Shown one piece after another: positions 10,122 to 21,471 of a DNA stretch of 45,636 bases. The notes under the pieces are model-generated. The model did not search any database and was not told where the DNA came from. It worked only from the letters and a program-made list of their open reading frames with translations. The stretch lies in assembly GCF_021730435.1 (NCBI RefSeq), contig NZ_JABWGX010000034.1, forward strand, positions 1 to 45,636, written 5' to 3'. The stretch's first letter is position 1, and each line of letters begins with the position of its first letter. Origin of the DNA: Xanthobacter agilis (GTDB lineage Bacteria > Pseudomonadota > Alphaproteobacteria > Rhizobiales > Xanthobacteraceae). The translations under genes were made by a program, and so were the position numbers.

Positions 10122-10679
10122 TCAATGCGCCTCGGCGGCCGCGAGCCGATAGATCGTCGCCCTATGCACGCCGAGGGTGGCGGCGATGTCCCGGGCCGGC
10201 ATCCCCTCCGCGTGCAGCCGTCGCGCGAGACGCACTTGGTCGGCATTCAGCGCCGGCGGCCGGCCGAACCGGACGCCCCGCGCCTTCGCCGCGGCGCGCC
10301 CTGTCCCCGTCCGCTCGACAATCAACGCCCGCTCGAACTCTGCGATGCCGGCGAAGACCGTGAGCACCATCCGCCCCGCCGGTGAGGTCGTGTCGGCCCA
10401 GGGCTCGGCCAGGGACCGTAGGCCAGCCCCCGCGGCAGACAGGCGCTCGGCGATGTCGAGCAGGTCACGGGTGGATCGTGCGAGGCGGTCGAGCCGGGTC
10501 ACGACCACCACATCTCCCGCCCTCAGATGATCCAGCATGGCGGTGAGCTGCGGCCGGCTCCGGGTCGCTCCGCTGACTTTCTCCTCGAACAGCCGCTCGC
10601 AGCCGGCCTCCCGCAGGGCGCTGCGTTGTTGCCGGAGATCCTGATCCTCGGTCGAGACGCCCGCATAGCCCAGCAGCAT
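10122..10679 (-). CDS. Serine resolvase/invertase family recombinase
   Basis: A 185-residue small serine recombinase. The catalytic domain starts MLLGYAGVSTEDQDL with the nucleophile Ser9, followed by VVVTRLDRLARSTRDL (active-site arginines) and the E-helix region VFAGIAEFERALIVERT. The C-terminal helix-turn-helix is seen in PARDIAATLGVHRATIYRLA. One oddity: the position before V-S-T is normally Arg (YARVST; Arg8 of gamma-delta resolvase) but here it is Gly, explained by a single C-to-G change, and this could weaken catalysis. I start at 10679 because the fold begins there; an in-frame upstream start would add seven residues. A nested palindrome lies directly upstream. Confidence 0.88.
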   Translation of the reverse strand: MLLGYAGVSTEDQDLRQQRSALREAGCERLFEEKVSGATRSRPQLTAMLDHLRAGDVVVVTRLDRLARSTRDLLDIAERLSAAGAGLRSLAEPWADTTSPAGRMVLTVFAGIAEFERALIVERTGTGRAAAKARGVRFGRPPALNADQVRLARRLHAEGMPARDIAATLGVHRATIYRLAAAEAH

Positions 10680-10688
10680 GGAGTTCTC

Positions 10689-10739
10689 GTCGCAAAACAC
10701 GTCGCATAATTATCGCTTTATGCGACAATCTTTTGCAAC
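10689..10739. promoter_or_regulatory. Nested palindrome upstream of resolvase, candidate res site/operator
   Basis: The inner dyad is GTCGCATAA (10701-10709) and TTATGCGAC (10718-10726), perfect over 9 bp with an 8-nt centre, 26 bp in all. That is close to the size of a resolvase res subsite I (about 28 bp). An outer dyad, GTCGCAAAA (10689-10697) and TTTTGCAAC (10731-10739), matches at 8 of 9 positions. It covers the DNA just before the resolvase start, where the promoter should be. Confidence 0.6.
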
Positions 10740-11138
10740 CCTCAAAGGGGCGTGGCTGCGGCGCGCTCGCATTGTCGCGAAACTTAGGAGTTGTGCGAAC
10801 CGTGCGAGATCAACATGTTTGGGTGAGCAACCTATGGGGTCATACAGCCGTATCGGTTGGGCGGAGCGATGCGAGGTCGTATCCTTGATAGCAGTAAGAT
10901 GTACTTCTACTCCTGCTCTAAGCATTGGCGTCGGCTCCGTTCATATCGATCCATCCGCGGAAGGGAACGCTCAATTGCGATCACACGTCCAGTCGGCAAA
11001 AGGGCAAGGTCATCGTCTGTCAGCGGACAGAGGATAGAGGTATAAAAATATGTCGACAAACGTTGTGTACTCCCCACATTTGGGTAAAACCTTAACCGAG
11101 TAACATCCATAAGATTTATTGCATCAGTTTATGCTGAA
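10740..11138. other. AT-richer region upstream of cas3
   Basis: About 400 bp with base composition clearly richer in A+T than the flanks and no convincing gene. Two short open frames on opposite strands have no recognisable features. It contains a dyad TCTGTC-AGCG-GACAGA (11016-11031) followed 10 nt later by TATAAAAATATG, a possible -10 region. The cas3 promoter is likely here. Confidence 0.5.
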
Positions 11139-13655
11139 ATGGAATTGCTCGATATGGAAAGCCATCTAACGGACTGGCCTGGAAAGAGCGCACGGGAAAC
11201 CTATCCAGAACATCCTGCAGTTTATCATATGCTGGATGTCGCGTCGGTAGCGGAGCGATTTCTGATTTCAAGTCCATTCACCGAGGAGATCAAAGCTGCC
11301 TTCGTCCTTCTCATAGCTCTGCACGATCTCGGAAAGATCGGTGACGGCTTCCGCAACATGATCCGGGTTGGCTCAGCCCAGACGCTCCGTCACTGGGAAT
11401 TGACCAATGCCTGGCTGCTGCCGAATGATCCTCTGCGCGCGCGGCTCCGGGCGAACGGTGCGGCCTGGACGGATTTGGTGGCGGCGATCGCTGGGCATCA
11501 TGGCAGGCCCCCGAAGCCGTCCGGCAAGCCAGTGAAGCGGGAGATGGAATATTTCCAACGGTTTTGCAGGGCAGAGGGGCCGCAGGCCGCGCGGGATGTT
11601 CCTGCAATCATCGACGCCCTTTTTTCGCTCTGGCCTCACGCTTTGCTCGCTGGCGTCACAGAACAAGAAGCTAAGCGGCTGAGCTGGTGGCTCTCCGGCC
11701 TTACGGTGGCGGCAGATTGGGTTGGCTCGAATCCGGTCTGGTTTCCGGCACGCAAGCCTGACCTCGGCTTGCCCGAATATCTCGCCGAAGCGCGGGCGCG
11801 AGCCATCGTCGCTGTGCAGGAGGCCGGACTGCAGGCCGCACGGCTGGGCGAAGAACCGCTTTTCGACTTCCCCTTGCGCCCGATGCAGATCGCGGCGCGG
11901 GATATTGACCTTCCGGCCGGGCCAATGCTGGCATTCGTCGAAGACGAGACGGGTGCGGGCAAGACCGAAGCCGCGCTCATCCTCGCCCAGCGCATGCTGA
12001 TCGCCGGCAAGGGGAAGGGTCTGTATTTTGCCCTCCCCACCATGGCCACGGCGGACGCCATGTTCATGCGTGCCGCAAAAGTCATTGGCCGGCTGTTCGA
12101 GGCGCCCTCGCTGACGCTGGCTCATGGCCGGGCCACGCTGTCCCAGCCCTTCCGCGATCTGGTTGGCCGCTCTGCGATCAGCGACGACGTGATCTGCGCG
12201 CCCTGGCTCGCGGACAGCCGGCGCCGCGCGCTGCTGGCCGACGTGGGGGTGGGGACGATCGACCAGGCGCTTTTGTCGGTGATGCCAACTCGCTTCTCCA
12301 CGCTCCGCATGTGGGGCCTTGCCTCGAAGATCCTGATCGTCGACGAGGCGCACGAGATCAGCGGCGATCACTATATGGCGGAGCTGCTTGCCGCATTGTT
12401 GCGGGTTCATGCCGCGCTGGGGGGCTCGGCGATCCTGCTCACCGCCACCCTGCCACTTCAGGATCGAGCGATGCTGACGCACGCCTTCGCCCAGGGGGCG
12501 GGGCGTGACTGGCCTGTAGATGCGGACCAGAGCTACCCGGCCCTGTCGATTCCCGGTGGCGAGGCCCGGCGCGACTTCGACCAGAAGCCCGGTCTGAAAG
12601 GGCCTGTCCGGGTGGTGCGGCTGCAGGCGATGGAGGCGGCGCTCGATCTGCTGACGACGCAGGCGGCGCGCGGCGCGGCCTGCGTCTGGGTGCGCAATGC
12701 GGTGGACGAGGCAATCGCTGCCGTCGAGGCGTTGCGCGCGCGCGGCGTGCCGGCATCCTTGCTGCATGCGCGCTTCGCGCTTTGCGACCGCAAGCGGATC
12801 GAGCAGGCTGAGATTGACCGCTTCGGCAGGATGGGCGAAGGGCGGGCCGGCCGGGTGCTGGTCGCGACCCAGGTCGTCGAATCGAGTCTCGATCTGGATT
12901 TCGACGTGATGATATCCGACCTCGCGCCCATCGCGGCTTTGATCCAGCGGGCGGGCCGGCTATGGCGGCACATGGCGGAACGCCCTCGCGCGCTGCGTGC
13001 CGTGCCGGAACCGGTGCTGCATGTGCTCTCGCCCGATCCGGCCGTGGTCGTGGATGAACGGTGGCTGGTGGATGTGCTGGGGCAGAGCGCTTGGGTCTAT
13101 CCGGTCGCCGAACAATGGCGCACCGCCGATGTTCTCTTTTGCACCGGGATGATCACGTCGCCGGCCGGGCTGCGTGACCTGATCGAGGCGGTCCGCTCCG
13201 AGGCGAAGCCGGTGCCCGCGCCGTTGGAGGCGGCGGAGATGGAGCGCATCGGTCAAGGCTATGCTGAAGCTAATCGCGCCACGCACAACCTCATCGACTT
13301 TGCTGCGGGCTACCGCCGAGGAGGCGCCGGCGCTGACGATACCACCTTTCCCACCCGCCTCGGGCGGCCGACGCGAACTTTGGTGCTGGCACGGCGGCGG
13401 GCCGGAATGCTGGTGCCCTGGGCCGAAGGCCACGGCGCGGATGCCGTCGAGGGCTGGATGCTGTCGGAGGTGCAGGCCGACGCGCGGCGCCTCGAGCGGC
13501 TGGAACTGCCAGATCAGCGCACGCCCGAGATTGCAGCCGTGACGAAGGATTGGCCGGAGTGGCGCCGGAACGGGATGACCGTCTGCCCGGTCGCGGACGA
13601 TGGGTCGATCACCGAGGGCTTGCACTATCAGGCGGCCACGGGTCTATTGCTCTAG
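11139..13655 (+). CDS. cas3: Type I-E CRISPR nuclease-helicase Cas3
   Basis: An 838-residue effector nuclease that Cascade recruits to degrade target DNA. The N-terminal HD nuclease domain shows HPAVYH (from residue 25) and the HD pair His62-Asp63 in LHDLGKIGDG. The superfamily 2 helicase follows: Walker A ETGAGKT (residues 270-276), DEAH box (402-405), motif III LTATLP, and motif VI IQRAGRLWRH. Length is close to E. coli Cas3 (888). The first ATG has no clear ribosome site; ATG at 11154 is an alternative. The stop codon (TAG, 13653-13655) lies inside a degenerate CRISPR repeat, so the cas3 transcript could carry the mini-CRISPR that follows. It is separated from cas8e by 351 nt, so the Cascade operon can be controlled on its own. 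Confidence 0.95.
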   Translation: MELLDMESHLTDWPGKSARETYPEHPAVYHMLDVASVAERFLISSPFTEEIKAAFVLLIALHDLGKIGDGFRNMIRVGSAQTLRHWELTNAWLLPNDPLRARLRANGAAWTDLVAAIAGHHGRPPKPSGKPVKREMEYFQRFCRAEGPQAARDVPAIIDALFSLWPHALLAGVTEQEAKRLSWWLSGLTVAADWVGSNPVWFPARKPDLGLPEYLAEARARAIVAVQEAGLQAARLGEEPLFDFPLRPMQIAARDIDLPAGPMLAFVEDETGAGKTEAALILAQRMLIAGKGKGLYFALPTMATADAMFMRAAKVIGRLFEAPSLTLAHGRATLSQPFRDLVGRSAISDDVICAPWLADSRRRALLADVGVGTIDQALLSVMPTRFSTLRMWGLASKILIVDEAHEISGDHYMAELLAALLRVHAALGGSAILLTATLPLQDRAMLTHAFAQGAGRDWPVDADQSYPALSIPGGEARRDFDQKPGLKGPVRVVRLQAMEAALDLLTTQAARGAACVWVRNAVDEAIAAVEALRARGVPASLLHARFALCDRKRIEQAEIDRFGRMGEGRAGRVLVATQVVESSLDLDFDVMISDLAPIAALIQRAGRLWRHMAERPRALRAVPEPVLHVLSPDPAVVVDERWLVDVLGQSAWVYPVAEQWRTADVLFCTGMITSPAGLRDLIEAVRSEAKPVPAPLEAAEMERIGQGYAEANRATHNLIDFAAGYRRGGAGADDTTFPTRLGRPTRTLVLARRRAGMLVPWAEGHGADAVEGWMLSEVQADARRLERLELPDQRTPEIAAVTKDWPEWRRNGMTVCPVADDGSITEGLHYQAATGLLL

Positions 13656-13740
13656 CCTCGCATGCGCGGGGATGACCCGTGTATCGGCGATGCATCCGTG
13701 AGGATGTCCGTACGTTCCCCGCATGCGCGGGGATAATTAA
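13651..13740 (+). CRISPR. Degenerate two-repeat mini-CRISPR (CreR/CreA-like) between cas3 and cas8e
   Basis: Two degenerate copies of the main-array repeat lie exactly one unit (61 bp) apart: pseudo-repeat 1 at 13651-13679, a 32-nt pseudo-spacer at 13680-13711, and pseudo-repeat 2 at 13712-13740. Copy 1 keeps the hairpin (CCTCGC-ATGC-GCGGGG, with one T-G wobble) and most of the 8-nt handle (ATGACCCG versus ATGAACCG). Copy 2 keeps a perfect hairpin (CCCCGC-ATGC-GCGGGG) but its handle is lost (ATAATTAA). The parts kept are those a mature type I-E crRNA needs: the 5' handle from copy 1 and the 3' hairpin from copy 2. The pseudo-spacer matches the adjacent DNA at 13742-13759. This looks like a functional crRNA-like guide, not a decaying array; that step is inference. 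Confidence 0.85.
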
Positions 13741-13773
13741 GTGTATAGGCGAAGCATCCAGTCCGCTTGACTG
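13739..13773 (+). promoter_or_regulatory. Candidate Cascade target (AAG PAM plus protospacer) upstream of cas8e
   Basis: The AAG at 13739-13741 is the canonical type I-E PAM. The 18 nt after it match the pseudo-spacer at guide positions 1-5, 7-11 and 13-18, with mismatches only at 6 (C versus A) and 12 (T versus A). Those are positions where Cas7 flips the guide base out, so pairing would be in effect uninterrupted. Beyond position 18 the match is lost. A 32-nt protospacer would end at 13773 and cover the TTGACT box. Limited pairing of this kind should allow binding without Cas3 cleavage. Confidence 0.7.
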
Positions 13774-13796
13774 AGCAACTTTTTGGTGTGTAGCAT
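13767..13796 (+). promoter_or_regulatory. Candidate promoter of the Cascade operon
   Basis: TTGACT (13767-13772) resembles a -35 box and TAGCAT (13791-13796) a -10 box, separated by 18 nt. Transcription would start near 13803, leaving a 5' untranslated region of about 200 nt before cas8e. The -35 box lies in the last six bases of the proposed Cascade target. A hairpin with a 9-bp stem, a one-base bulge and an AAAA loop (13806-13828) would lie near the 5' end of the RNA. Confidence 0.45.
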
Positions 13797-14006
13797 GCAA
13801 ATACGGCGGGCTCGGAAAACCGGCCCGCAGCTGTCGTGCTCAAAATCCCCCACCGCTGCAACGGCAAGAAACAGAGGGGTTGGCACAGTGCATAAGACTC
13901 TGAGCACCCCGTTTGCGTGGATGTCATTTTAGGCATTCGCCCAAGCGGGGCAAGGGTTCCGCGCGCGAGAGTTGTTTATCCGCGATCTCCTTCTCTGGGA
14001 ACGATC
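13797..14006 (+). other. Leader region of the Cascade operon
   Basis: About 210 nt between the proposed promoter and cas8e. It holds the hairpin GCGGGCTCGG-AAAA-CCGGCCCGC (13806-13828) and a possible 14-codon frame at 13888-13932 that starts with GTG 8 nt after AGAGGGG. That short frame is part of a longer open stretch from an ATG at 13795, which lacks a ribosome site. Whether any of this is translated is unknown. It could be a leader peptide, a CreT-like toxin RNA, or nothing. Confidence 0.4.
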
Positions 14007-15496
14007 ATGCCCCTCAATCTCATCGCCGACCGCTGGATCCCCATCCGCCGCTCCGACGGCACAGCCTCAGTCATCCGTCCCGATGAGATCGCTGATCCCG
14101 GCCTCGCCTTTCCCGACTGGCCCCGCCCAGACCTCAATATCGCCTGTCTCGAACTCCTGATCGGCATGGTCTTGCTCGCCGATCCCCCGGCCGACCTCCA
14201 TGACTGGCAGGCCCGCAGGGCGCCCGACCCCGAACGCCTGCGCACCGCCCTCGCGCGGCTGGCGCCGGCCTTCAATCTGACGGGAGAGGGGCCACTCTTC
14301 CTGCAGGATCTCGATCCGCTCGACGGCGAGCCGAACCCGCCCGACATGCTGTTCATCGATTCGGCGGGTGGCAACACGGCGCGGAACAATGCCGACCTGA
14401 TGGTTCGACGGAACCGCTATCCCGACCTCGATCTGCCCCTTGCGGCCATGGCGCTTTATCTCCTTCAGGCGCACGCGCCCTCGGGCGGGGCCGGCAACCG
14501 CACCTCCATGCGCGGCGGCGGGCCGCTGGTCAGTCTGGTCGATCCCGGAACCGGCCGGCTCTGGGACCTGATCTGGGCCAACGTGCCCTATGGCAAGCCG
14601 GCGGCGCCGGACGTGCTGCCCTGGATGAAGCCGACCCGGACGTCGCAAGCCAAGGGGTCCGAGACCTATCCGCAGCACGGCCACCCCGCCGAAGCCTTCT
14701 TCGGCATGCCGCGCCGCCTGCGCCTCGTCTCCGAGGCGGGCCGGGTCACGGGCGTCGTCCAGCGCCCCTACGGCACCAATTATGCCGGCTGGGTCCATCC
14801 GCTGACGCCCTACTACAAGCTGAAGGCCGGGGCCGAGCCTTTGCCGATGCACCCCCGCGCGGGGGTGTTCGGCTATCGCAACTGGCTGGGCGTGGTTCTG
14901 GCCATGCCCGAGGAGCGGGTGGAATTGGGCCAGCGCGCAAAGGCGGTGGAGGAATATGGGGATCGGTGCCGCCATCTCCCCGAGCCGCTGCCGGACCCGC
15001 GCATCATCGTCGCCGGCTGGTCCATGGATAACATGAAGCCGAGGGATTTCATCCTGTCGCGCCAGCCGCTCCTGCCGTTGGACGGCGAGGCGGCACTGAC
15101 GCTCGCGGCGATGATCGAGGCCGCGGAGATCTTCGGGTCCGCGTTGCGGGGCGCGCTGAAGCCGGTGGCGGGCGAGGGAACCGCGCTCGACGCGCTACGT
15201 GAAGCCTTTTTCATCGACACGCAGTCCGCCTTCGACGCTGGCGTCGATGCGCTGCTGCGCGGGGAACCGCCCGTCGAGGTCGCCGGGGCATGGGTGCGTG
15301 CTCTGGAGCGCGTCGCGCTGCGCATCTTCGAGCGCGAGGCCCTGCCGGGGCTCGACCAGAGGAAGGCCGAGGAAATGGAGGCGATTATCGCCGCTTATGA
15401 CGGATTGCGCGCGGTCTTCGCCGGTTGGCGCCGTCCGGGAAGCGACGCCTATGTCCGGCTCGAGCTCAAACCGCGCCAAAAGAAGAAGGAGGCCGC

Positions 15497-15500
<4 letters not shown>
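14007..15500 (+). CDS. cas8e: Type I-E Cascade large subunit Cas8e (Cse1/CasA)
   Basis: A 497-residue protein (E. coli CasA has 502). In the Cascade complex it recognises the PAM, helps unwind the target and recruits Cas3. The N-terminus PLNLIADRWIPIRRSDG is typical of Cse1, followed by a central region including GGNTARNNADLMVRR and a C-terminal four-helix bundle. The frame is open back to 13917, but the conserved start is the ATG at 14007, with a GGGAA box at a short distance. The stop overlaps the next gene (ATGA). It is the first gene of an operon of tightly overlapping genes running through cas2. The candidate target of the mini-CRISPR lies about 235 nt upstream. Confidence 0.95.
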
Positions 15501-17778
<2,278 letters not shown>

Positions 17779-17782
<4 letters not shown>

Positions 17783-18519
17783 CCCTCTATCTGTCGCGGC
17801 TTACCATTGCCCGCAATCCGACGGTGGCGGCGATCCGCGCGCTGATCGATCCCTTGCCCGCTCCGGCCCGAGGCGGTCTGCGTGATCCGGCGCAAGGGCG
17901 CATCATGGATGCCCACCATCGCCTGATCTGGTCGCTGTTTGGTGACACGTCGGAGCGCGCGCGCGATTTCCTCTGGCGCTCGGAAGGCAAGGGGCAGTTC
18001 CTTGTTCTTTCGCATCGGCCGCCTTCAGCCGATGGCGCCGGCTTGTTCAGTCCCCCGCAGACCAAGGCGTTCGCCCCGGATCTGCGTGAGGGCGATCGGC
18101 TGGCCTTCGTGCTGCGTGCCAATGCGACGCGGACCAGAAAGGACCCGACTGATCCACAGAAGCGGGGCGCGCGCGTCGATGTGGTGATGGACACCATCCA
18201 TGCTCTGCCCTCCGGTCGCGCGTGCAACGCGCGGCGGGATGCACGCATGAGCGCGGCCGAGGACGCCGGACGGCGCTGGCTGGAACATCAGGGAGCCAAG
18301 GCAGGCTTCATCCTCGAACACTTGATTGTAGACGATTATTCCGTCGTGCCCCTGCCGGCCCAGGTCGGGCCGCGGCGGGAGCAACCGCAGTTCGGCGTCA
18401 TGGATCTGGCCGGCCAGATTCGCGTGGGCGACCCCGCGCTCCTGCTCGCGGCATTGGCCCAGGGCCTTGGTCGCGCCAAGGCCTTCGGGTGCGGCCTTAT
18501 GCTGATAAGGCGCGCGTGA
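17779..18519 (+). CDS. cas6e: Type I-E crRNA endoribonuclease Cas6e (CasE)
   Basis: A 246-residue nuclease that cuts the pre-crRNA at the base of the repeat hairpin and stays bound to the 3' hairpin. Two ferredoxin-like domains are expected. A histidine pair at residues 46-47 (MDAHHRLIWSLF) holds the likely catalytic His, and the C-terminus has the glycine-rich loop GLGRAKAFGCGLMLIRRA. The repeat hairpin CCCCGC-ATGC-GCGGGG is its substrate; the same hairpin is kept in the mini-CRISPR at 13651-13740, so that RNA should be processed too. The ATG overlaps the cas5 stop. Confidence 0.94.
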
Positions 18520-18520
18520 G

Positions 18521-19743
<1,223 letters not shown>

Positions 19744-19820: not shown

Positions 19821-21251
19821 CTGTTCCCCGCATACGCGGGGATGAACCGTTGGGGTTGGCCGTGGAGTGGGCGCGGGAGAACTGTTCCCCGCATACGCGG
19901 GGATGAACCGGTCGATCCACGTGATGTGCAGGCCGCGAAAGGCTGTTCCCCGCATACGCGGGGATGAACCGCGCTCGAACGTCTTCGTCACGTCTTTTTG
20001 CCACTGTTCCCCGCATGCGCGGGGATGAACCGCTCGCCCTTTTCCCACCGAGAAACGGTCGCCTCTGTTCTCCGCATGCGCGGGGATGAACCGCTCACCA
20101 CCTCCGACATCAAGCACGTCCTCTCCTGTTCCCCGCATGCGCGGGGATGAACCGAAGGAATGCCGTACCCCACGCAACGAGACCGACTGTTCCCCGCATG
20201 CGCGGGGATGAACCGACCGCATGCCCGAACTATCCGCCCCCACCGAACTGTTCCCCGCATGCGCGGGGATGAACCGTAAGCGTTCCAGAAACGCCGGTCC
20301 AACCTTCCCTGTTCCCCGCATGCGCGGGGATGAACCGTGCCAATAGGCCGGCTCGAACCGCCGCACCGGCTGTTCCCCGCATGCGCGGGGATGAACCGCG
20401 CGAGCAGATCGCATCCATCGCCGTGGTCACCTGTTCCCCGCATGCGCGGGGATGAACCGGTCAGGACAGTGCCCGCCGCCGCATTGCCGTCCTGTTCCCC
20501 GCATGCGCGGGGATGAACCGTCTTTGGTGCGCGCGAAACCCGGACCCTCGCGCTGTTCCCCGCATGCGCGGGGATGAACCGGATTCTGGGACGGTATAGG
20601 GACAATGACCTATCTGTTCCCCGCATGCGCGGGGATGAACCGCAAAAGCGATCTGCCTCAATGAGGAGTGGGATCTGTTCCCCGCATGCGCGGGGATGAA
20701 CCGATGGCGCGCGGACAGCGGGCGGCCCCGGCTGGCTGTTCCCCGCATGCGCGGGGATGAACCGACAGCATCATGGGGCTGGTGGACGGCACCAAGCTGT
20801 TCCCCGCATGCGCGGGGATGAACCGATATTGTATAGCTCGGCGAGTTGGCGAGCATGCTGTTCCCCGCATGCGCGGGGATGAACCGACCAAAGAACGGAA
20901 CGACTACAGCGTCTTTGACTGTTCCCCGCATGCGCGGGGATGAACCGTGGGGGATGATTTCGCAACGTGAAATTGCGGGCTGTTCCCCGCATGCGCGGGG
21001 ATGAACCGCATCTGGCCCGCGCCGGTTGAGAGGCCGGCAACTGTTCCCCGCATGCGCGGGGATGAACCGTTCGCGCTGCCCTATTTCCTGTACCTGCACA
21101 CCTGTTCCCCGCATGCGCGGGGATGGACCGGTGATGGGCGCGATCTCCTGGGGGTTCCACCCTGTTCCCCGCATGCGCGGGGACGAACCGGAACAGCGCG
21201 AGTTCCGCGACCGGTGCACCACCTGTTCCCCGCATGCGCGGGGATGAACCG
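19821..21251 (+). CRISPR. Type I-E CRISPR array, 24 repeats and 23 spacers
   Basis: Twenty-four 29-bp repeats with a 61-bp period; 22 spacers are 32 nt and one (21131-21161) is 31 nt. The repeat starts CTGTTCCCCGC, folds through CCCCGC-ATGC-GCGGGG and ends ATGAACCG, the usual I-E form. Repeats 1-3 (19821, 19882, 19943) carry CATACG in place of CATGCG in the loop. Repeat 5 has a C-to-T change in the stem. Repeats 22 and 23 have one change each in the handle (GATGGACCG, GACGAACCG). Repeat orientation, cas2 next to the first repeat, and degeneracy at the far end all place the leader on the left. I noticed no repeated spacers. Confidence 0.97.
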
Positions 21252-21471
21252 CAGATGGGCGCTCGTCTGGCTACGGGGCGGAGGCGTTCCGGCTGCCACC
21301 GTGCGCGCTCCGCGGGTTCTCTCGGGCCTCCGGCCCGGATCAAACAAGGGGCAGAATGAGGGGGTAGCGCCTGATCCCCGGCCAGCGCCGACGATGGCCG
21401 CCGTCCTCCCACCCCCAACCCCTCCCGCTCCGGGGAGGGGAGCGCCTTACTCACACGTCCTGAAAAATCCC
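21252..21471. other. Region between array and phosphoesterase gene
   Basis: About 220 bp with no convincing gene. It contains a perfect 8-bp stem, CCCCTCCC (21419-21426) and GGGAGGGG (21433-21440), with a 6-nt loop, which may end transcripts coming out of the array, although no T-run follows. No further degenerate repeat is visible after 21251. Confidence 0.55.

What the first reader, a model, noticed from the sequence alone, without database searches (positions are those of the whole stretch)
13680..13773. Pseudo-spacer matches adjacent DNA with an AAG PAM and mismatches only at flipped-out positions 6 and 12
Guide positions 1-18 (13680-13697) match 13742-13759 at TGTAT, GGCGA and GCATCC; the two mismatches are at 6 and 12, which type I-E Cascade does not pair. 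The PAM is AAG (13739-13741), the best known I-E PAM. Pairing ends after position 18, which in known CreR/CreA cases allows binding but not cleavage. The 32-nt footprint includes TTGACT (13767-13772), a -35-like box upstream of cas8e. The simplest reading is autorepression: when mature crRNA is scarce or Cascade abundant, the mini-guide shuts the Cascade promoter. I find this the strongest candidate for an undescribed regulatory system in the window.
Basis: partly seen in the sequence, partly recalled or inferred. Interest (0 to 1): 0.95.

Follow-up and report, generated by a model that had tools for sequence, protein, structure and literature searches.

The report
Mini-CRISPR guide targeting its Cascade promoter
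Between two CRISPR genes lies a one-guide mini-CRISPR whose guide matches the promoter beside it, so the cell's own CRISPR complex probably sits there and turns that promoter down; this kind of self-control is already known, but sister loci suggest it may be related to a toxin switch that guards CRISPR.

Summary
A degenerate mini-CRISPR (13651-13740) lies between cas3 and cas8e of a type I-E locus. Guide 1-18 matches 13742-13759 except at 6 and 12, beside AAG; the 32-nt footprint covers TTGACT. It is not chance. I find the same layout, mostly with unrelated guides, in 15 of 73 cas8e loci (window included). Ten of 41 guide-like elements reach >=14/17 matches next to AAG/ATG, against 0 of 2950 cross-locus controls. 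In positions 1-14, 11 of 15 mismatches fall at 6 or 12; TTGAC lies at target 24-31 in 9 of 15 loci. Against its closest relative L012, one-sided changes occur only at 6, 12 and 18, and position 11 changed on both sides. Cascade-guided repression of this promoter is therefore very likely. It is not undescribed: CreR (autorepression) and type I-E CreTA (toxin repression) are in print. Which one this is stays open. Six sister loci carry strong-SD mini-ORFs behind the target promoter, like CreT toxins. The window has hairpins but no such mini-ORF, and its leader drifts like fourfold sites. I favour CreR-type autorepression of cas8e, perhaps on a detoxified CreTA cassette.

The parts
11139..13655 (+). 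cas3; its stop codon lies inside psiR1
   Evidence: NCBIfam cas3 models; sequence
13651..13679 (+). psiR1, degenerate repeat; would give 5' handle AUGACCCG
   Evidence: 22 of 29 to array repeat; folds to a 6-bp stem with one G-U, but 30 of 200 shuffles fold as well
13680..13711 (+). guide (pseudo-spacer, 32 nt)
13712..13740 (+). psiR2, degenerate repeat with intact 7-bp stem
13739..13741 (+). AAG PAM
13742..13773 (+). 32-nt target footprint; matched part 13742-13759 (mismatches at 6 and 12)
13767..13796 (+). promoter-like site: -35 TTGACT 13767-13772, -10 TAGCAT 13791-13796
   Evidence: TTGAC at target position 24-31 in 9 of 15 paired loci
13806..13828 (+). hairpin near the predicted 5' end of the leader RNA
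   Evidence: z -3.1 alone, -1.9 in the 60-nt test; the L012 segment tested gave z 0.3
13907..13950 (+). 18-bp hairpin (9 + 9 pairs around a 1x1 mismatch) 57 nt before cas8e
   Evidence: z -5.1; L012 counterpart z -3.5
14007..15500 (+). cas8e (cse1), first gene behind the promoter
   Evidence: TIGR02547 192.8 bits, cut-off 70
15425..19743 (+). cse2 (ORF 15425-16024), cas7e, cas5e, cas6e, cas1e, cas2e
19821..21253 (+). canonical CRISPR array, 61-nt period

Best explanation
A CreR-type cas-regulating mini-CRISPR. The transcript through the 3' end of cas3 carries two repeat-like hairpins; Cas6e cuts out a crRNA-like RNA with 5' handle AUGACCCG. Cascade loaded with it recognises AAG at 13739-13741, pairs over 1-5, 7-11 and 13-18, covers the -35 box at 13767-13772 and lowers transcription into cas8e and the genes behind it. 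Pairing stops at 18, so Cas3 is not set off. Array crRNAs compete for Cascade and relieve the repression. Shown here: anatomy, uniqueness, recurrence, co-variation, the sixth-position rule, the fixed place of the -35. Inferred: transcription, processing, binding, repression, competition. Least certain: that the output is cas8e. I put guide-directed repression of this promoter at about 0.9 and CreR-type output at about 0.6.
For: Match, PAM, footprint. Null: 10 of 41 against 0 of 2950. 11 of 15 mismatches in positions 1-14 at 6 or 12, P 4e-7; without L012 10 of 14, 0 of 100000 permutations. Window versus L012: one-sided changes only at target 6, guide 12, target 18; two-sided change at 11. psiR1, guide, psiR2 and target differ at 12 of 106 sites, the leader at 53 of 210, fourfold sites at 123 of 447 and 56 of 275. 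TTGAC at target 24-31 in 9 of 15 loci. No start codon with SD duplex <= -6.5 kcal/mol in the leader of window or L012. No terminator-like site by the scan of 13500-14100. Four loci (L013, L015, L024, L074) have only 93-119 nt from target start to cas8e and no strong-SD mini-ORF. Binding without interference at 18-bp pairing in E. coli (PMC5904413).
Against: The window cassette has a long leader (265 nt from target start to cas8e) with hairpins, like the toxin-type sister loci. An 18-bp hairpin lies between promoter and cas8e and may hinder read-through. No RNA or binding data. psiR1 hairpin is no better than shuffles. The promoter is a 9 of 12 consensus match only. 58 of the 73 loci show no such pair by my search.
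Confidence: 0.6

Rival explanations
1. CreTA: the guide is an antitoxin (CreA) that represses a small toxic RNA (creT) encoded about 13797-13950, so losing Cascade poisons the cell.
For: Strong-SD mini-ORFs of 4-13 codons stand behind the target promoter in 6 of 15 paired loci, 3 of 56 loci without a pair and 10 of 398 random stretches. Four share GGAGGTTNNGAAGATG, with no other exact copy on the + strand of the loci scanned, 907,800 positions. Rare codons in L029 (AGA, TTA, ATA) and L057 (ATA ATA). Window has the same promoter-hairpin-hairpin order. A type I-E CreTA sits in a cas3-casA intergenic region of C. rodentium (PMC12055562).
Against: Window and L012 have no start codon with a good SD; the only weak candidate, GTG 13888, is GGG in L012; the leader drifts like fourfold sites. 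Published Acinetobacter CreT needs SD and start codon (PMC10097628, sections 10-11).
Confidence: 0.25
2. Relic: a former CreTA or CreR cassette no longer used.
For: Toxin start not recognisable; leader near neutral.
Against: Guide and target changed together at position 11 and one-sided changes are confined to 6, 12, 18; AAG and TTGAC kept in both window and L012.
Confidence: 0.1
3. Tandem copy: the target is a decayed second copy of the spacer from a shrinking array, without function.
For: In the window the target starts 1 nt after psiR2.
Against: Targets lie 180, 46, 45 and 16 nt beyond psiR2 in L024, L015, L057 and L047; mismatches follow the sixth-position rule and the -35 has a fixed place; PAMs are AAG or ATG in the 10 best loci.
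Confidence: 0.03
4. Chance similarity.
For: None beyond the short length of the match.
Against: 0 of 2950 controls; unique in the genome; recurrence in 15 loci.
Confidence: 0.01

Closest known systems
CreR, cas-regulating RNA (reported for types I-B, I-E and V-A)
   Same: Mini-CRISPR guide with limited complementarity to a promoter next to cas genes; Cascade or Cas12a as repressor; type I-E is among the reported types (PMC13131331 passage; PMC12737573 passages).
   Different: Primary paper (recalled: Liu et al. 2023, Cell Host Microbe) not held, so details could not be compared. Here the guide sits at the 3' end of cas3 and a long hairpin-bearing leader precedes cas8e.
CreTA of Citrobacter rodentium, type I-E (PMC12055562, section 13)
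   Same: cas3-casA intergenic region; crRNA-like guide; partial match beside a type I-E PAM at a promoter.
   Different: creA there is on the opposite strand, PAM ATG, and a translated 96-bp toxin ORF follows; no such ORF is seen in the window.
CreTA of Acinetobacter, type I-F (PMC10097628, passages and sections 10-11)
   Same: cas3-csy1 intergenic region, two degenerate repeats, mini-ORF with SD as seen in the sister loci here.
   Different: Type I-F, CC PAM, creT divergent from creA, non-canonical seed; the window lacks the mini-ORF.
Haloarchaeal CreTA, type I-B (PMC8501985, sections 14-15)
   Same: Two divergent repeats; pairing at 1-5 and 7-11 essential while 6 and 12 are free.
   Different: Archaeal, TTC PAM, tRNA-sequestering toxin with rare codons.

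Membership tests
CreR | mini-CRISPR with two repeat-like elements near cas genes | tested here: met
CreR | guide partly complementary to a promoter of the cas genes, beside a PAM | tested here: met
   match, AAG and promoter-like site upstream of cas8e; that this is the cas8e promoter in the cell is not tested
CreR | no toxin gene behind the regulated promoter | tested here: inconclusive
   no strong-SD mini-ORF in window or L012, but an RNA toxin of another make is not excluded
CreR | Cascade-dependent repression relieved by crRNA or anti-CRISPR | not testable with these tools
   needs experiment
CreTA | crRNA-like guide (CreA) matching a nearby promoter | tested here: met
CreTA | creT: strong SD and start codon with mini-ORF behind the target promoter | tested here: not met
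   none in window or L012; met in 6 of 15 paired loci
CreTA | toxicity when Cascade is lost | not testable with these tools
   needs experiment
type I-E CRISPR-Cas | cas3, cas8e, cse2, cas7e, cas5e, cas6e, cas1e, cas2e and an array | tested here: met

The most novel reading that the evidence does not exclude
The window holds a detoxified CreTA cassette turned into an autorepressor. A discrete module at the cas3 end (guide, target promoter, 5' and 3' hairpins), which in sister loci appears to guard Cascade with a rare-codon mini-ORF RNA, has lost its toxin start while selection kept the guide-target pairing, so Cascade now regulates its own genes. The guide is cut from the cas3 transcript and so reports Cas3 level. 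Across the family, guide length moves nearly always in steps of six (20, 26, 32 nt), as if whole Cas7 units were dropped.
Probability: 0.3. Interest if true: 0.72.

Novelty: new member of a known kind. Interest (0 to 1): 0.5.

Why it matters
It adds an alphaproteobacterial type I-E case of Cascade used as a repressor, with co-variation strong enough to predict which bases matter. It places CreR-like and CreTA-like cassettes at the same cas3-cas8e junction in related bacteria, so whether the two forms turn into each other becomes testable. Short guides in steps of six would show natural tuning of Cascade length for binding without cutting.

Tried and rejected
Chance match: rejected. Tandem spacer copy: rejected. 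Guide from a phage: 0 of 115 matching phage records cover 80% of the 32 nt; the rows listed cover 56-66% at E 0.9-3 (10 of 115 rows seen). Known RNA family: only RAGATH-16 on the minus strand, 27.8 bits against a gathering score of 65.6. Minus-strand promoter-like site 13953-13926: its -10 is not kept in L012 (by eye). Relatives of the whole intergenic region in plasmids: none; cas8e relatives in viral contigs: none; more relatives by family: 3 of 17, 1 of 9 and 5 of 8 genomes. Antisense 94-aa ORF 13652-13936: no NCBIfam family. Small ORFs beside cas8e in L071, L054, L061: none reaches a Pfam cut-off. A covariance model of the toxin-like RNA was not built.

Rows dropped before counts: the 73 loci (list) leave out L010 (contig of the same length as that of L012, taken as the same) and L069/L070 (fragmentary). 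12 of 40 plasmid records with a match were fetched. Canonical arrays L023 and L028 were dropped before the null test. Of rows with >=12 of 15 matches I did not count L018, L041 (two) and L058 (PAM not AAG/ATG/AAA), the shifted duplicates of L048 and L061, and two L028 rows with minus-strand targets. L068 reached 12/17 and was not counted. L074 (12 of 15, AAA) and L076 (11 of 15, AAG) were counted because of their layout and are weaker. In one search five paired loci were scanned over 560 nt instead of 330. An earlier, looser mini-ORF scan gave 10 of 73 loci against 5 of 73 on the reverse complement.

Full report
What is there. The window holds a type I-E locus with cas3, cas8e, cse2, cas7e, cas5e, cas6e, cas1e and cas2e and an array of 61-nt period at 19821-21253. 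Between cas3 and cas8e lies a one-spacer mini-CRISPR: psiR1 13651-13679, guide 13680-13711, psiR2 13712-13740. Each repeat matches the array repeat at 22 of 29 positions. Both fold into a stem-loop, psiR2 better than 199 of 200 shuffles, psiR1 no better than 30 of 200. The cas3 stop codon lies inside psiR1.

The match. Guide 1-18 equals 13742-13759 except at 6 and 12, after AAG. In the 4.81-Mb genome the pattern with those two positions open occurs without mismatch only at these two places. The -35-like TTGACT is target position 26-31 and stands 18 nt before TAGCAT.

More than chance. I examined 73 cas8e loci with a usable start: the window, 40 from genome contigs, 20 from whole genomes and 12 plasmids. 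Guide-like elements were sought within 700 nt upstream. Fifteen loci have a guide with a downstream target: window, L012, L013, L015, L024, L029, L030, L040, L047, L048, L057, L061, L071, L074, L076. With AAG or ATG required and 17 positions weighted alike, 10 of 41 guide-like elements reach >=14 matches; 0 of 2950 guide-against-other-locus controls do (2 reach 13, 7 reach 12). In one search the PAM only broke ties, and in all 10 loci with >=13 of 15 matches on the + strand it was AAG (8) or ATG (2), leaving aside a shifted duplicate in L048; one minus-strand target in the L028 array also scored 13. PAMs over the 15: AAG 12, ATG 2, AAA 1.

Positions 6 and 12. Over the 11 pairs with >=13/17, 11 of 15 mismatches in positions 1-14 are at 6 or 12 (2.1 expected, P 4e-7) and 18 of 32 in positions 1-18 at 6, 12 or 18 (5.3 expected). 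Without L012 it is 10 of 14; 0 of 100000 permutations reach that. Over positions 1-17 the excess is weaker, 11 of 25 (P 5e-5). Between window and L012 (cas8e DNA 90% identical) the pair differs at five bases: target 6, guide 12, target 18, and position 11 in both, A/A becoming G/G. In H. hubeiense CreA, nucleotides 1-5 and 7-11 are needed and 6 and 12 are free (PMC8501985, section 15). In E. coli I-E every sixth position is flipped out and AAG is the best PAM (PMC5904413, passages); mismatches across 19-32 left robust binding without priming or interference.

Promoter geometry. TTGAC lies at target position 24-31 in 9 of 15 loci (0.011 expected per locus), at 37, 38 and 46 in three more, and not within 60 nt in L024, L047 and L048.

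What is regulated? Six of the 15 paired loci (L029, L030, L040, L048, L057, L076) have a strong-SD mini-ORF of 4-13 codons behind the promoter, against 3 of 56 loci without a pair and 10 of 398 random stretches. Two of the three (L058, L075) look like such cassettes by eye. Four share GGAGGTTNNGAAGATG exactly, with no other exact copy on the + strand of the loci (907,800 positions). L029 reads AGA ATC TTA ATA and L057 ATA ATA, where AGA, TTA and ATA run at 0.5-1.0 per 1000 (L029) and ATA at 1.2 (L057, 860 codons only) by a rough count over long open frames. L040 and L076 have few or no rare codons. The 60 nt near the predicted RNA start fold with z <= -3 in 8 of 15 loci (window -1.9), and hairpins follow the stop by eye. 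This resembles CreT. Four other loci (L013, L015, L024, L074) have 93-119 nt from target start to cas8e and no mini-ORF, which fits autorepression.

The window is between. It has hairpins at 13806-13828 and 13907-13950 and 265 nt from target start to cas8e. No start codon with an SD duplex of -6.5 kcal/mol or better stands in its leader or that of L012; the weak candidate GTG 13888 is GGG in L012. The leader differs at 53 of 210 sites, like fourfold sites (123 of 447 in cas3, 56 of 275 in cas8e), while psiR1, guide, psiR2 and target differ at 12 of 106. Pairing kept and toxin not seen favours CreR-type autorepression, perhaps on a former CreTA cassette. A toxin RNA that works without an ORF is not excluded.

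Source of the guide. The scan of 10600-14100 shows no + strand promoter-like site between 11430 and the guide (other promoter types would be missed). In 9 of 15 loci the long upstream ORF (cas3 in the window; not tested elsewhere) ends within the 29 nt before the guide or just past its start. So the guide probably comes from the cas3 transcript. In R. capsulatus the module is present in DSM 1710 (L047) and absent in SP108 (L042), a 348-column gap with alignable sides.

Guide lengths. 32 nt in 7 loci, 26 in 1, 20 in 5, 21 in 2. That one Cas7 covers six nucleotides is recalled. One search on this was made and only its listing seen.

Known or new. CreR for I-B, I-E and V-A: PMC13131331 (passage), PMC12737573 (passages and section 3.1), PMC12948488 (passages); the primary paper is recalled and not held. 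I-E CreTA: PMC12055562 (passages and one section). I-F CreTA: PMC10097628 (outline, passages, two sections). I-B CreTA: PMC8501985 (outline, passages, two sections), PMC9458426 (passages). The listings showed no paper on alphaproteobacterial cases; most were capped and the library lacks most subscription papers, so this is no proof of absence.

Limits. All function is inferred from sequence. Promoters and SD sites are consensus calls. The loci were found through cas8e similarity and are related to different degrees, so counts describe this set only.

Noticed in passing
15 paired loci, e.g. L013, L015, L030, L048, L061, L074: Pseudo-spacer lengths fall nearly always on 20, 26 or 32 nt (7 x 32, 1 x 26, 5 x 20, 2 x 21), i.e. 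steps of six.
   Followed up: partly
L029, L040, L048, L076 upstream of cas8e: Shared exact motif GGAGGTTNNGAAGATG starting mini-ORFs of 4-6 codons behind the guide-target promoter: putative type I-E CreT RNAs.
   Followed up: partly
L047 against L042 (R. capsulatus DSM 1710 and SP108): Presence and absence of the whole module between cas3 and cas8e within one species.
   Followed up: partly
L075 and L058 upstream of cas8e: Strong-SD mini-ORFs (GTG CTA AAA ATA CCC in L075) with repeat-like elements; no guide-target pair passed my ungapped search, L075 may pair with a one-base shift.
   Followed up: partly
L024 4157-4233, minus strand: A predicted tRNA-Ser with the unusual anticodon ACT lies between the mini-CRISPR and its target.
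   Followed up: no
L071 1249-1440 and L054 1225-1401: Similar small ORFs (63 and 58 aa) just before cas8e, looking like small DNA-binding proteins by eye; no Pfam family above cut-off.
   Followed up: partly
L061 971-1378: ORF of 135 aa (103 codons from a strong-SD TTG) behind the target promoter, no Pfam family: possible protein in the toxin place.
   Followed up: partly
window 13610-13706, minus strand: Weak RAGATH-16 match, 27.8 bits against gathering 65.6, over the mini-CRISPR; probably chance.
   Followed up: no
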